Source: Bacillota bacterium (GTDB lineage Bacteria; Bacillota; GCA-003054495; Carboxydocellales; JAJZSN01). Taken from it: 34,130 nucleotides of DNA. Each line of letters starts with the position of its first letter. The first letter of the stretch is position 1. Shown one piece after another: positions 1,987 to 32,510 of this stretch. The stretch lies in assembly GCA_021849745.1 (NCBI GenBank), contig JAJZSN010000021.1:1-34130 (forward strand), written 5' to 3'. Position numbers and translations under genes: made by a program. A model generated the notes under the pieces. That model was not told the DNA's origin, searched no databases, and worked only from the letters and a program-made list of their open reading frames with translations.

Positions 1987-2692
1987 TAACCTTTATAAGA
2001 ACTTCGGCTCCTTGGAGGTTTTAAAAGATGTTAACTGCCATGTCCAGGAAAAGGAAGTGGTGGTGGTCATCGGCCCCAGCGGTTCGGGTAAAAGCACCAT
2101 GTTGCGGTGCATCAATAAGCTGGAGGATGCCACCGGTGGGGAGATTGTGGTGGATAACATCCCTCTTAATTCGGAGGCCAATATTAACGCCATTCGCCAG
2201 GAAGTGGGGATGGTTTTTCAGCGGTTTAACCTGTTTCCCCATATGAAGGCCTTGGATAATATAACCCTAGCCCCTATGAAGGTACGGGGGATGAGTAAGG
2301 ATGAAGCGGTAGTTATCGCCAGGGATTTGCTGAATAAGGTGGGCTTGGCCGATAAGGCTGATGCCTATCCTGACCAGTTATCCGGTGGGCAGCAGCAGCG
2401 GGTGGCCATTGCCAGGGCCCTGGCCATGCGGCCCAAGGTGATGCTCTTTGATGAGCCTACGTCGGCCCTTGACCCGGAGATGGTGGGGGAGGTATTGGGG
2501 GTTATGAAGGATCTGGCCAAGGAAGGGATGACCATGGTGGTGGTGACCCACGAGATGGGCTTTGCCCGGGAGGTGGGGGACCGGGTTATCTTTATGGATG
2601 AGGGCCGGATTATCGAAGAAGGTACTCCGGAGGAGATTTTTAACAACCCTAAAAATGAAAGGTTGAAGGGGTTCTTAAGTAAGGTGTTATAA
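1973..2692 (+). CDS. Amino acid ABC transporter ATP-binding protein
   Basis: A 239-aa cytoplasmic ATPase of the GlnQ/HisP family that powers the importer. It has Walker [10 protein letters not shown] (about residues 33-41), Q-loop [10 protein letters not shown], signature [15 protein letters not shown], Walker [14 protein letters not shown] and the H-loop VTHEMGF. The GTG start lies inside the permease gene and follows AAAGGAGGC. Length and motifs are complete. No clear terminator follows before the cold-shock promoter. Confidence 0.95.
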
Positions 2693-2736
2693 AATCTGTC
2701 CTATTTTAGAAAAGATTAAGAATACTGGTAAAAGGT

Positions 2737-2791
2737 TTGACATTCTCTCTTCGTGTATGGTAGTATTAAGTAGTGAGTTCGCCTAACTCAC
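2737..2791 (+). promoter_or_regulatory. Cold-shock gene promoter and 5' UTR hairpin
   Basis: TTGACA at 2737-2742 and TAGTAT at 2761-2766 (18-bp spacer) form a promoter. A perfect 7-bp hairpin, GTGAGTT/AACTCAC with loop CGCCT, follows at 2773-2791 in the leader. The GGGGGAATG ribosome site is downstream of it. Structured cold-shock leaders often act in mRNA stability or temperature control; that function is inferred here. Confidence 0.55.
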
Positions 2792-2823
2792 ATGATTTCA
2801 AATTTTTAGGGGGAATGTAAAGA

Positions 2824-3021
2824 ATGCAAGGCAAGGTAAAATGGTTTAACCAGGAAAAAGGATTTGGCTTCATTGAAAGAGAAGATGGCGGCGATGTATT
2901 CGTTCACTTTTCTGCTATTCAGGAAGAAGGTTTCAAATCCCTGGCTGAAGGTCAGCAAGTAGAGTTCGACATCGTCGAAGGCGCTCGTGGCCCTCAGGCT
3001 GCTAATGTTGTAAAACTGTAA
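2824..3021 (+). CDS. Cold shock protein, CspA family
   Basis: A 65-aa single cold-shock domain that binds single-stranded nucleic acid and acts as an RNA chaperone. The RNA-binding motifs KGFGFI (residues 12-17) and VFVHF (25-29) are intact, and the start MQGKVKWFN and end NVVKL are typical of the family. It is a monocistronic unit with its own promoter and terminator. The ATG at 2824 follows an AGGGGGAATG ribosome site. Confidence 0.95.
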
Positions 3022-3056
3022 TACCCATATAGAGGTTAACTGATTTTGCAACCAAA

Positions 3057-3093
3057 CCCCGGAAGATAATTCCGGGGCTTATTAATTTTTTTA
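3057..3093 (+). terminator. Rho-independent terminator of csp
   Basis: CCCCGGAA/TTCCGGGG is a perfect 8-bp stem (3057-3064 with 3070-3077, loop GATAA), followed by an AT-rich tail ending in seven Ts. It lies just after the cold-shock gene. Confidence 0.85.
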
Positions 3094-4999: not shown

Positions 5000-5003
5000 G
5001 AAT

Positions 5004-5137
5004 AGCTTGTAGCTGATAGCTTGTAGCTTGTAGCTTTGGGGTAGGCTGTTGAGAAAAAAGACCCTAAAGACATGCATTGAAGGCTATAAGCTACAAGCTA
5101 CCAGCTATCAGCTATATTATGCTATCAGCTACCAGCT
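5004..5137. repeat. Inverted pair of heptamer repeat arrays
   Basis: The argC-argJ gap holds AGCTTGT/AGCTGAT-type 7-nt units at 5004-5035 and reverse-complement units (GCTACAA, GCTATCA, GCTACCA) at 5083-5137. The two arms can fold into a long imperfect hairpin with a loop of about 47 nt. The array ends just before the argJ ribosome site, AGGGAGG at 5142-5148. Confidence 0.8.
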
Positions 5138-5155
5138 AAAACAGGGAGGCAAAGC

Positions 5156-6396: not shown

Positions 6397-6460
6397 GGTG
6401 TCAGGGGTTAGGGTTGGGGTATTCTTGCAGGTTGGGTTCGTAGTTCATAGTTCGTAGTTG
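6397..6460. repeat. Heptamer arrays (CAGGGGTTAGGG and GTTCGTA types)
   Basis: Two short arrays lie 3' of argJ: G-rich units at 6397-6419 and GTTCGTA/GTTCATA units at 6436-6460, joined by GGTATTCTTGCAGGTTGG. The same order of blocks and the same joining sequence recur, inverted, at 32431-32510. This shows a larger composite repeat rather than chance low complexity. Confidence 0.75.
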
Positions 6461-6748: not shown

Positions 6749-6787
6749 AGCTCAAAGCTGATAGCTGATAGCTGATAGCTGACAGCT
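6749..6787. repeat. AGCTGAT heptamer array
   Basis: Five and a half 7-nt units (AGCTCAA, AGCTGAT three times, AGCTGAC, AGCT) run up to the ribosome site of the radical SAM gene. The 7-nt period is exact. Confidence 0.85.
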
Positions 6788-8204: not shown

Positions 8205-9092
8205 ATGATTAACCCCATGGAACGGGCGCAGATATTGGTTGAGGCCTTACCATACATAAAAAAGTTTCAGGGTAAGACCATTGTTATCAAGTACGGCGGC
8301 AATGCCATGATTAGCGATGAGTTGAAAAATGCAGTGATGCAGGATGTTATCTTGATGAAATTCGTGGGGATGAACCCGGTCATCGTCCACGGGGGCGGCC
8401 CTGAGATTACCGGGATGCTGAAAAGAGTGGGCAAAGAAACGGAATTCGTGGGCGGTCTGCGCATGACCGACCGGGAGACTATGGAGATAGTAGAAATGGT
8501 GCTGGTGGGGAAGATTAATAAGGAGATTGTGGCCCTCATCAACCAGTTTGGCGGCCGGGCAGTGGGTTTGTCGGGCAAGGATGACAACCTTATTCGGGCC
8601 GAGAAGAAGCTGGGCCGGGTGCGGACCCCTGACGGTCAGGATGAATTCCATGACATCGGTTATGTAGGGGATGTGGCGGAAATAAATCCTCGATTGCTGG
8701 AAAACCTGATGAATGAAGGGTTTATCCCTGTGGTAGCTCCTGTGGGCGTTGGTGAAGACGGGGCCGGGTATAACATCAATGCCGATTATGTGGCCGGGGA
8801 GATTGCGGCGGCCCTGAAGGCAGATAAGTTGATTCTCCTTACTGATGTGGAAGGGATTTTCGAGGATTACAGCAATAAGGAGACTTTGCTTTCGGAACTT
8901 AAGGTGGGCGAAATTGACGATAAAATTAGGCAGGGGGTTATCAGCGGCGGCATGATTCCTAAGGTGGAGTGCTGCGTGGCGGCCCTTGACGGCGGGGTTA
9001 ACAAGACCCATATTATTGATGGGCGGATTGCTCATTCTATTCTGTTGGAGATTTTCACCGATCAGGGGATAGGGACGATGGTGGTGAAATAG
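8205..9092 (+). CDS. argB: Acetylglutamate kinase
   Basis: A 295-aa amino-acid kinase that phosphorylates N-acetylglutamate, usually the arginine-feedback step where ArgJ recycles acetyl groups. The family motifs IKYGGNAM, IVHGGGPEI, VGGLRMTDRETMEIVEMVL and GGMIPKVECCVAAL are present. The N-terminal helix MERAQILVEALPYIKKF is the kind seen in the arginine-sensitive hexameric form, which supports feedback inhibition (inference). Start follows AGGAGGCAGGAAGG. The TAG stop overlaps the first base pairs of a heptamer array at 9091. Confidence 0.96.
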   Translation: MINPMERAQILVEALPYIKKFQGKTIVIKYGGNAMISDELKNAVMQDVILMKFVGMNPVIVHGGGPEITGMLKRVGKETEFVGGLRMTDRETMEIVEMVLVGKINKEIVALINQFGGRAVGLSGKDDNLIRAEKKLGRVRTPDGQDEFHDIGYVGDVAEINPRLLENLMNEGFIPVVAPVGVGEDGAGYNINADYVAGEIAAALKADKLILLTDVEGIFEDYSNKETLLSELKVGEIDDKIRQGVISGGMIPKVECCVAALDGGVNKTHIIDGRIAHSILLEIFTDQGIGTMVVK

Positions 9093-9115
9093 CTGTCAGC
9101 TGTCAGCTATCAGCT
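9091..9115. repeat. AGCTGTC heptamer array at argB stop
   Basis: AGCTGTC twice, AGCTATC and AGCT follow in exact 7-nt steps. The first two bases are the AG of the argB stop codon, so the array abuts or created the gene end. GGTATTCC just after it is the complement of a motif found in the leaders of the structured elements. Confidence 0.75.
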
Positions 9116-11555: not shown

Positions 11556-11580
11556 AGCTGACAGCTGACAGCTGATAGCT
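11556..11580. repeat. AGCTGAC heptamer array
   Basis: Three and a half exact 7-nt units (AGCTGAC twice, AGCTGAT, AGCT) stand just before the leader of structured element A. A GTTCGTAGTTGG stub of another heptamer family lies at 11522-11533. Confidence 0.8.
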
Positions 11581-11585
11581 TCCCC

Positions 11586-11807
11586 GGTAATACTTATAAG
11601 CTACATTCATAGGTTGGGGGTTTTTGCGGAGTAACTTTTCACCAGCGTGCGATAGACAGCCCGTCGGATGCCGAGACATTACCCTAAAAGGGCGTAAAGG
11701 TGCAGTCACCTCTCATTGAAGACGGAAAAGAACAATCATGGTAGCTCGCTTGAAGCCTGAAAAGTTACGGAGCAAATGCCCCCAACCTCCCACCACAACT
11801 GACCTAA
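11586..11807. repeat. Structured element A between carA and carB
   Basis: A 174-bp element (11613-11786) is bounded by 27-nt imperfect inverted ends: GTTGGGGG pairs with CCCCCAAC, and GTAACTTTT with AAAAGTTAC. The inside has small hairpins, including AGGTG/CACCT, and CCGTC (11661-11665) pairs with GACGG (11721-11725). Motifs AGCCCGT (11658), ACATTAC (11676), AAAGGGCGTAAAG (11687) and CCTCTCATT (11709) recur in the same order in element B. Leader 11586-11612 and trailer 11787-11807 (CCACCACAACTGACC) match those of the other copies. It should be transcribed within the arginine operon. It could be a structured RNA or a small non-autonomous mobile element. Confidence 0.8.
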
Positions 11808-16081: not shown

Positions 16082-16117
16082 TCTGATAGCTGACGGTTGA
16101 TAGCTGACAGCTGACAG
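16082..16117. repeat. CTGATAG/CTGACAG heptamer array
   Basis: Five 7-nt units fill most of the gap ahead of the aminotransferase gene, ending 5 bp before its AGGAGG site. Confidence 0.75.
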
Positions 16118-17390: not shown

Positions 17391-17597
17391 GGAATGCCTG
17401 ATTAGCCCGACGTGCATAGGAAAGGGGTTATTCTGGAATGGAGTCCGCATCCGGGTGCGTTACTTAGCCCGTGAAGGCCTACATTACTACCCCCAAAGGG
17501 CGTAAAGTAACTAGCGCCTCTCATTACTCTGCGTAACCAAAACTAAATCGTACAACCAAAGTCTAGTTGCGGCGCAATGGAAGAATAACCCCTTTCC
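17391..17597. repeat. Structured element B upstream of argG
   Basis: A perfect 16-bp terminal inverted repeat, GGAAAGGGGTTATTCT (17419-17434) with its complement at 17582-17597, bounds 179 bp. The leader GGAATGCCT...GACGTGCATAGG (17391-17420) matches the other copies; the right flank does not clearly carry the usual CCACCACAACTGACC. Internal motifs AGCCCGT (17466), ACATTAC (17481), AAAGGGCGTAAAG (17495) and CCTCTCATT (17517) match element A in order, while the stems differ and stay paired. No terminator or protein is seen here. Confidence 0.75.
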
Positions 17598-17648
17598 GCA
17601 GTATACCTAACGCTTAGGTGATTATGACAAGAAAGGAGTCCCCAATTA

Positions 17649-26787: not shown

Positions 26788-27089
26788 TAACTTATAATAG
26801 GAAATAGGTAATGATGGGGAATAGTTAACTTGTCAAAATTGGCTACAGAGAGCTGGGGTAAGCTGGAAACCGGCGCCATAACTTTTAACTTGCTCGCCCC
26901 TGAACTGTATACTGAAAAACGTTTCTTTAAGAAATGATTTAGTAGGTAGAGCCGGAAACTTGCGTCCGTTATCATGCAAGGTTTATCGTAAGTGGCTGCG
27001 ATGATGCAGCAAACAGGGTGGTACCGCGGAAGGTAACTATAACCTCTCGTCCCTGACAGGAATTTCGGCTGTCCGGGTGAGGGGTTTTT
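26788..27089 (+). promoter_or_regulatory. T-box riboswitch, probably leucine
   Basis: The T-box sequence AGGGTGGTACCGCGG is at 27015-27029, in the antiterminator. Stem I carries AGAGAG (26847-26852) and a GGGG/CCCC pair (26854-26857 with 26897-26900). Directly after it TGAACTG places CTG (26905-26907) as the likely specifier, a Leu codon, fitting the ilv/leu genes downstream. Uncharged tRNA binding should favour readthrough. The specifier frame is by eye and could be off. Confidence 0.9.
27043..27089 (+). terminator. T-box attenuator terminator
   Basis: CCTCTCGTCCCTGACAG pairs imperfectly with CTGTCCGGGTGAGGGG (27069-27084), followed by five Ts. It lies just after the T-box sequence and competes with the antiterminator. 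Confidence 0.88.
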
Positions 27090-27111: not shown

Positions 27112-28776
27112 ATGCGCAGTGATGCCATGAAAAAAGGTTTCGAAAAAGCGCCCCACAGGTCTTTATTCAAGGCCTCAGGGTACATCGACCAGGAGTTAAA
27201 TCAACCCATCATCGGGATTGTCAACTCGCAAAATGAGGTGATTCCCGGTCATATTCACCTTGATGACATTGCTGACGCTGTCAAAGCAGGAGTGAGGATG
27301 GCAGGAGGGACTCCCATGGAGTTTCCGGCTATCGGGGTTTGTGACGGTATCGCCATGAACCATACGGGGATGAAATATTCCCTGGCCAGCCGGGAGCTGA
27401 TTGCCGATTCCATCGAGATTATGGCCCGGGCCCACGCCTTTGACGGTCTGGTACTCATCCCTAACTGTGATAAAGTAGTGCCCGGTATGCTGATGGCTGC
27501 CGCCAGGCTTAATATCCCTGCGGTGGTGATGAGTGGAGGGCCGATGCTGGCCGGAAAATTTCAGGGGCGCGATGTTTCTTTAAGTCAAGTTTTCGAAGCC
27601 GTTGGTGCGGTGAGCGCTGGGCGAATGAGTGAAGAGGATTTGGCTGAGCTTGAGGACAACGCCTGTCCTGGATGTGGTTCATGTTCCGGGATGTTTACCG
27701 CCAACTCCATGAACTGTATGTCCGAGGTGCTGGGCCTGGCCCTACCGGGGAATGGGACCATCCCTGCTGTGATGGCGTCCCGGCGGAGGCTGGCCAAAAT
27801 GGCCGGGATTCAAGTTATGGAACTAGTGAAAAAGGATATCAAGCCTCTGGATATTCTCACTGCTGACGCCTTCCACAATGCCCTTACAGTAGATATGACT
27901 TTAGGTTGTTCCACCAATACCGTTCTCCACTTGCCGGCCATTGCTTATGAAGCCGGAATTAACATAAATTTGGATCTTATCAATGAAATCAGCAGCGTAA
28001 CCCCCCATCTCAGCAAGTTAAGCCCTGCCGGTTCCCATCACATCGAGGATCTGGACAGAGCCGGGGGAATCCCCGCGGTAATGGCTGAACTTGCCAAGAA
28101 GGGTTTAATCAAAACCGGAAGTCTCACTGTTACAGGCAAAACCGTAGGTGAGAACGTAGCCGGCAAACAAATTCTCGACCCTGAGGTTATCAGGCCGCTA
28201 ACCAATCCTTACAGCCCTGTGGGCGGGCTGGCTGCCTTAAAAGGCAACCTGGCTCCCCAAGGGGCGGTGGTCAAAAGGGCCGCTGTGGCGCCGGAAATGA
28301 TGGTCCACAGCGGACCGGCCCGGGTCTTTGGTTCGGAGGAAGAGGCCGTAGAGGCCATTCTGGGCCAGAAGATTAACAAAGGGGATGTTATCGTCATCCG
28401 TTACGAGGGCCCCAAAGGCGGCCCTGGGATGCGGGAAATGCTGACCCCCACCGCAGCGGTGGCAGGTCAGGGGTTAGACAAGGATGTGGCCTTAATCACC
28501 GATGGCCGTTTTTCCGGAGCTACCAGAGGAGCTTCCATCGGCCACGTTTCGCCGGAAGCCGCCGAGGGCGGGCCCATCGCCTTAATCAAGGACGGGGATA
28601 TTATTAAGATTGATGTCAATAACTGTACACTAGACGTGGACCTAAGTCCCGAAGAATTAGAGAGGCGCAGAGCCCAATTAAAACAGCCTGAACCCAAGAT
28701 AAAAACCGGTTACCTGGCCCGTTACGCTAAACTGGTTACCTCTGCCAGTACGGGTGCTGTGCTGGCTTTGGAGTAG
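27112..28776 (+). CDS. ilvD: Dihydroxy-acid dehydratase
   Basis: A 554-aa iron-sulfur dehydratase that makes the 2-keto acids of valine and isoleucine. The cluster and metal cysteines are in [11 protein letters not shown] (Cys near 120) and [36 protein letters not shown] and the C-terminal [25 protein letters not shown] are typical. Start ATG follows AAGGGGGAG after the T-box terminator. It is the first gene of the branched-chain operon. Confidence 0.96.
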
Positions 28777-28790
28777 GGCTCGGGGGTATG

Positions 28791-28905
28791 GTTCGTAGTT
28801 CATAGTTCATAGTTGGTAGATAAATCTGATAGCTTTAACTATGGGTCAACATCTTAAAAAGAAAGGCCTAAACAACTATGAACTACGAACCACGAACTAC
28901 GAACC
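28791..28905. repeat. Inverted heptamer pair (GTTCATA type) between ilvD and ilvB
   Basis: GTTCGTA/GTTCATA units at 28791-28818 face complementary AACTATG/AACTACG/AACCACG units at 28874-28905. They can fold into a stem of about 28 bp around a loop of about 55 nt. It fills most of the 174-bp gap inside the operon. Confidence 0.8.
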
Positions 28906-32430: not shown

Positions 32431-32460
32431 CTACGAACTATGAACTACGAACTATGAACC
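32431..32460. repeat. GAACTAT/GAACTAC heptamer array
   Basis: Four 7-nt units, the reverse complement of the GTTCGTA block at 6436-6460, in the matching place relative to the structured element. Confidence 0.75.
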
Positions 32461-32476
32461 CAACGTACAAAGAATA

Positions 32477-32510
32477 CCCTAACCCTAACCCCTAACCCCT
32501 AACCCCTGCC
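32477..32510. repeat. CCCTAAC telomere-like heptamer array
   Basis: Mostly 7-nt CCCCTAA steps with one 6-nt step. It is the reverse complement of the CAGGGGTTAGGG block at 6397-6419. It ends about 24 bp before the leuA ribosome site. Confidence 0.75.

What the first reader, a model, noticed from the sequence alone, without database searches (positions are those of the whole stretch)
11658..11717. Conserved inner core shared by elements A and B
AGCCCGT, ACATTAC, AAAGGGCGTAAAG and CCTCTCATT occur in the same order and near-equal spacing in A (11658-11717) and B (17466-17525), while the sequence around them has diverged. Between AAAGGG and CCTCTC the spacing is identical (22 nt). Conserved loops amid changing stems is a hallmark of a functional RNA. 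Both sit within the arginine cluster, upstream of carB and argG.
Basis: seen in the sequence. Interest (0 to 1): 0.72.

Follow-up and report, generated by a model that had tools for sequence, protein, structure and literature searches.

The report
Mobile repeat with conserved structured core
The two matching blocks are two copies of a roughly 180-base folded mobile repeat that is scattered dozens of times through the genomes of this bacterium and of some Desulfotomaculum-type bacteria; it is real and folded, but it is not a switch for arginine genes.

Summary
In detail: three of the four blocks recur at fixed spacing in A and B (0 expected). ACATTAC is three bases out of register and is coincidental. 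The reading is half right. A (11611-11788) and B (17418-17598) are two subfamilies of one dispersed ~180-nt element: 25 matches in this genome, 37 in Desulfotruncus arcticus, 87 in Desulfallas sp. Bu1-1, and matches in 16 of 113 genomes searched in D. arcticus' order. No Rfam family matches. The outer stem sequence differs between subfamilies but keeps pairing (93.9% of cells paired, 0/500 shuffles reach it), and the core helix GCCC/GGGC is replaced by GCGC/GCGC in nine sequences. It is not an arginine riboswitch: neighbours are ordinary unrelated genes. In Desulfallas the element has ~18-bp terminal inverted repeats and 5-bp target duplications (12 matches, 0.5 expected; p=5e-13), as a MITE does; internal-deletion copies keep the ends. 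The ends differ between lineages while the core stays, which is unusual for MITEs. Whether the core acts as RNA or as DNA hairpin is open: sense orientation is favoured overall (92:26) but not in every lineage, and G-U exceeds A-C only mildly (102:67).

The parts
11611..11788 (+). element A, subfamily with about 19 near-full or partial copies in this genome
11611..11626 (+). A: 5' arm of outer stem P1 (AGGTTGGGGGTTTTTG)
   Evidence: pairs with 11773-11788
11627..11631 (+). A: CGGAG, 5' half of a symmetric internal loop (GGA opposite GGA)
   Evidence: sequence; position conserved in A/B/D families
11632..11641 (+). A: 5' arm of inner stem P2 (TAACTTTTCA)
   Evidence: pairs with 11758-11767
11658..11664 (+). 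A: AGCCCGT, 5' side of core helix P4 (GCCC 11659-11662)
   Evidence: compensatory C-G to G-C change in other subfamilies
11687..11699 (+). A: AAAGGGCGTAAAG, 3' side of core helix P4 (GGGC 11690-11693)
11709..11717 (+). A: CCTCTCATT block, kept only in A, B and partly in G002
11758..11767 (+). A: 3' arm of P2 (TGAAAAGTTA)
11768..11772 (+). A: CGGAG, 3' half of the GGA/GGA internal loop
   Evidence: sequence; alignment
11773..11788 (+). A: 3' arm of P1
11789..11799 (+). A: CCCACCACAAC tail; the form CCTCCC(N)CCACAA recurs after other copies in this genome
17418..17598 (+). element B, second subfamily; 3 full and 2 half copies in this genome
17418..17433 (+). B: 5' arm of P1 (AGGAAAGGGGTTATTC)
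17434..17438 (+). B: TGGAA, 5' half of the GGA/GGA internal loop
   Evidence: closing pairs differ from A
17466..17472 (+). B: AGCCCGT, 5' side of P4
17495..17507 (+). B: AAAGGGCGTAAAG, 3' side of P4
17517..17525 (+). B: CCTCTCATT block
17578..17582 (+). B: TGGAA, 3' half of the GGA/GGA internal loop
17583..17597 (+). B: 3' arm of P1 (GAATAACCCCTTTCC)

Best explanation
A and B are copies of a non-autonomous, MITE-like mobile element of about 180-250 nt that folds into one long hairpin. The hairpin has an outer stem with a GGA/GGA internal loop, an inner stem, and a conserved branched core containing the helix GCCC/GGGC. It spreads as DNA by a transposase acting in trans on the ends (inverted repeats plus 5-bp target duplications shown in one lineage, inferred for this one) and lands between genes. 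The core is kept by selection on base pairing independently of the ends, which differ between lineages. Most likely the core matters once the element is in a transcript (inferred), for example as an RNA structure that makes the insertion tolerable inside operons. It is not a regulator of the arginine genes.
For: 25 matches in own genome, 8 in G002 of the same order; 37 and 87 in the genomes holding L065 (D. arcticus) and L067 (Desulfallas Bu1-1); 16 of 113 genomes of that order. Pairing kept through changes on both sides: 93.9% of cells paired vs 78.2% shuffled, 10 pairs and 70 cells with both sides changed, 0/500 shuffles as high, slid versions 37-51%. Core C-G to G-C double change in nine sequences. 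Desulfallas: TIR TGATTTAACTGCAAAAAC/GTTTTTGCAGCGAAATCA and 5-bp TSD, 12 matches vs 0.52 expected, p=5e-13. Internal-deletion copies keep the ends. Flanking genes ordinary, no recurrent partner. Overall 92 '++' vs 26 '--'; G-U 102 vs A-C 67 in the outer helix.
Against: No transposase was found between inverted-repeat pairs in Desulfallas. No TSD was detectable in this genome, D. arcticus or G002. The orientation excess is absent in G157 (7:8) and G002 (2:4), and at 78% overall it fits a simple leading-strand effect (p=0.52 against 0.75). The G-U excess is mild and absent in G157, G072 and G002. Compensatory changes could also come from template-switch repair of palindromes. No expression data.
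Confidence: 0.68

Rival explanations
1. The structure is needed at the DNA level only: a single-stranded hairpin or cruciform is the substrate of a recombinase or transposase, and the core is its recognition site.
For: TIRs, TSDs and end-keeping deletion derivatives; no strand preference in G157 by orientation or G-U/A-C; GGA/GGA and G-A pairs are also stable in DNA (own knowledge).
Against: Deletion derivatives lack the core, so movement by the ends would not seem to need it; G-U exceeds A-C in G000, G061, G062 (77 vs 40 cells); the ends, not the core, vary between lineages.
Confidence: 0.3
2. Cis-regulatory RNA (riboswitch or protein-binding leader) of arginine or amino-acid biosynthesis.
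For: Sense orientation upstream of carB, argG, carA, proB, leuC in this genome.
Against: Same element before or after unrelated genes (murF-like, rsmE-like, hydrogenase-type, gltX, purC/purF) in several genomes; no recurrent partner gene in 316 flanking ORFs; dispersed copies with TSDs.
Confidence: 0.04
3. A trans-acting small RNA with many gene copies.
For: Conserved fold in many copies.
Against: Copies sit between genes of operons without evident gene boundaries of their own; up to 87 matches per genome is unusual for an sRNA; deletion derivatives are common.
Confidence: 0.05
4. Compensatory changes reflect template-switch correction of a decaying palindrome rather than selection on a folded product.
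For: Within-genome copies already show paired changes (97 cells).
Against: Does not explain invariant unpaired positions of the core across lineages or the conserved GCCC/GGGC to GCGC/GCGC swap.
Confidence: 0.1

Closest known systems
MITEs (miniature inverted-repeat transposable elements)
   Same: Short, non-coding, multi-copy, long inverted repeats, TSDs and end-keeping deletion derivatives in Desulfallas.
   Different: Here a structured interior is conserved between genera while the ends differ; in an ordinary MITE family the ends are the shared part.
Mobile/repeat sequence candidates such as MRSC-65-2 (PMC11109978)
   Same: Structured motif with dozens of copies per genome and covariation in a long stem, judged selfish by its authors.
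   Different: MRSC-65-2 is described as one long stem with UYCCGG repeats in diverse phyla; this one has a branched conserved core and was found only in two lineages here. The two were not compared sequence by sequence.
bcr1-type repeats of the Bacillus cereus group (own knowledge)
   Same: Dispersed ~150-200-bp repeats with predicted RNA folds.
   Different: Different host group; no sequence comparison was made.
HEARO RNA (Rfam HEARO)
   Same: Structured RNA element occurring in many copies in some genomes (own knowledge).
   Different: No Rfam match even at E up to 10; no recurrent neighbouring ORF.

Membership tests
MITE | short non-coding repeat in many copies | tested here: met
   178-250 nt, 25-87 matches per genome
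MITE | terminal inverted repeats | tested here: met
   clear ~18-bp TIR in Desulfallas; in the window's genome the outer stem arms themselves are the inverted repeat, true termini not fixed
MITE | target-site duplication | tested here: inconclusive
   met in Desulfallas (12 vs 0.52 expected); not detected in G000, G061, G002
MITE | related autonomous transposon with the same ends | tested here: inconclusive
   no transposase between TIR pairs in the Desulfallas loci fetched; the genome is a draft and other lineages were not tested
riboswitch / gene-specific leader | consistent downstream gene function | tested here: not met
riboswitch / gene-specific leader | conserved structured core | tested here: met
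   structure conserved; that it acts as RNA is not shown
HEARO or any Rfam 15 family | covariance-model match | tested here: not met
group II or group I intron | Rfam intron match | tested here: not met
MRSC-65-2 | match to its published consensus | not tested
   consensus is a figure not held; text only

The most novel reading that the evidence does not exclude
The core is a functional RNA module of unknown activity (for example one that prevents premature termination or directs processing of operon transcripts) that has been taken up by, or has outlived, several transposon end types, so that selfish repeats in Desulfotomaculum-type bacteria carry an RNA that makes them tolerable inside operons.
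Probability: 0.3. Interest if true: 0.75.

Novelty: new variant of a known kind. Interest (0 to 1): 0.52.

Why it matters
Bacterial MITEs are usually seen as ends with a disposable middle. Here the middle is the conserved, covarying part and the ends differ between lineages, in more than ten genomes' subfamilies, with no Rfam entry. If the core acts as RNA, it would be a testable case of a selfish element that protects operon expression. If it acts as DNA, it points to an unidentified recombinase that reads a folded strand. In either case, copies before carB, argG and similar genes should not be annotated as riboswitches.

Tried and rejected
Rfam at gathering and permissive thresholds for A, the D. 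arcticus form and the half-copy locus: only chance matches. The idea that the L042 half copy runs into a group II intron: no Rfam match; the following part is another long hairpin repeat between punA- and pdp-like genes. Viral contigs: no match to the core pattern. Two viral protein scans (carB, argG) were of no use. Autonomous element in Desulfallas via its TIR: none. TSD search in G000, G061, G002: nothing convincing. Recurrent partner gene: none. Orientation as proof of RNA action: rejected as insufficient because G157 and G002 show none and the overall ratio fits leading-strand co-orientation. Literature searches found no description of this element.

Full report
Observation. The exact pattern AGCCCGT-N22-AAAGGGCGTAAAG-N9-CCTCTCATT is present at 11658-11717 and 17466-17525, twice in the window and never in 100 shuffles. 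The single block AAAGGGCGTAAAG is not significant alone with two mismatches; the combination is. ACATTAC is out of register by three bases between A and B and is a coincidence. The shared part is only the centre of longer elements with long complementary arms: A 11611-11788, B 17418-17598.

Copies. A DNA search of the own genome with A gave 37 matches, of which about 19 are full or large copies at 83-100% identity. B has three full copies and two 5' halves. A pattern for the core across one genome per species (GTDB) hit only Desulfotruncus arcticus and Desulfallas sp. Bu1-1, 15 stretches, and no viral contig. A covariance model of 20 sequences (R1) found 25 matches in the own genome and 8 in G002, the same order but another family, at E down to 3.5e-11. 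It found 37 in G061 (D. arcticus) and 87 in G062 (Desulfallas), and matches in 16 of 113 genomes of D. arcticus' order, several with about 20 or more copies. A second model on 399 genomes of the own phylum found only the own genome and G002. The distribution is therefore narrow and patchy. E-values are rough, and the models contain A and B, so the window's own scores are not independent evidence; the matches in G002 and in the genomes first reached are.

Structure. On 20 sequences RNAalifold gives the outer stem, with 11 of 20 pairs changed on both sides in at least one sequence. On 32 sequences from 13 genomes, 15 pairs in three helices (outer P1, inner P2 GCA/TGC, core P4 GCC/GGC) are paired in 93.9% of cells against 78.2% in shuffles. 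Ten pairs and 70 cells have changes on both sides, 0 of 500 shuffles reach any measure, and slid versions drop to 37-51%. The structure was chosen on the same alignment by a covariation scan, so these counts are optimistic. The most telling change is in the core: AGCCCGT...GGGCGT becomes AGCGCGT...GCGCGT in nine sequences, and G002 extends the same helix to CCCGTC/GACGGG. A GGA opposite GGA internal loop recurs in the stem of A, B and the D. arcticus form with changed closing pairs; this was read from the sequences and not tested by statistics.

Mobility. In Desulfallas the sequence beyond the model ends forms an inverted repeat TGATTTAACTGCAAAAAC...GTTTTTGCAGCGAAATCA. A scan of all boundary offsets finds 5-bp duplications at that boundary, 12 of 46 against 0.52 expected (p=5e-13, about 1e5 combinations tried); nothing comparable appears in G000, G061 or G002. 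Deletion derivatives keep the ends: an 82-nt and a ~54-nt form in the own genome and 61-147-bp forms in Desulfallas. Ends differ by lineage: G157-type GTTCTCGAAAAGGC, G172-type GAAAACTC, the Desulfallas type above. Some copies carry extra hairpins: about 62 nt (GGGGACACACCTCC...GGAGGTATGTCCCC) in G061 and G062, and CTAGTAAGGCT...AGCCTTACTTG in four own copies. No transposase was found between inverted-repeat pairs.

Context. With crude ORF calls, 118 copies between co-directional genes split 92 sense to 26 antisense: G000 18:1, G061 18:4, G062 30:6, G072 16:3, but G157 7:8 and G002 2:4. Against 50% this is p=8e-10, but against 75-80%, the usual leading-strand gene share (own knowledge), it is not significant. 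Within the outer helix, G-U cells exceed A-C cells 102 to 67 (p=0.009). The excess lies in G000, G061 and G062 and is weak or absent in G157, G072 and G002. Both results lean to an RNA role in some lineages and do not prove it. Flanking ORFs (316) show no recurrent family that could be a partner; a few orthologous gene pairs carry the element in two genomes, which may be chance, hot spots or old insertions.

Verdict. Shown: a dispersed, structurally conserved family, with the marks of DNA transposition in at least Desulfallas, not tied to arginine genes. Inferred: mobility of A and B themselves by a trans-acting transposase. Open: whether the core works as RNA. Nearest kinds in the literature are MITEs and the 'mobile/repeat sequence candidates' of PMC11109978.

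Noticed in passing
window 5003-5036, 5083-5138, 6436-6459, 6756-6787, 9091-9115, 11556-11580, 16083-16117, 28791-28814, 28874-28904, 32431-32459, 32477-32507: Many short intergenic arrays of 7-nt units (AGCTGAT, GTTCATA, CCCTAAC and others); one lies just 5' of element A, a 14-nt array lies 5' of B, and similar arrays lie 5' of many other A copies.
   Followed up: partly
window 26802-27057: T-box leader upstream of an ORF at 27112-28776 that looks like ilvD.
   Followed up: no
window 2668-3083: Rfam cspA thermoregulator match spanning a 65-aa cold-shock-like ORF at 2824-3021, followed by a ribosome-hibernation-type ORF.
   Followed up: partly
L042 1646-1836: Another long hairpin repeat (GGGGGAGGCAGTAACCC...GGGTTACTGCCTCCCC) downstream of a truncated B half copy, between punA- and pdp-like genes; no Rfam match.
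   Followed up: partly
L195, L238, L149: Two or more copies of the element in tandem, period about 270 nt in G172 and G157, also close together in Desulfallas.
   Followed up: no
L134-L143: About 62-nt hairpin insert replacing the AGCC part of the core, nearly the same sequence in D. arcticus and Desulfallas, better conserved than the host element.
   Followed up: no
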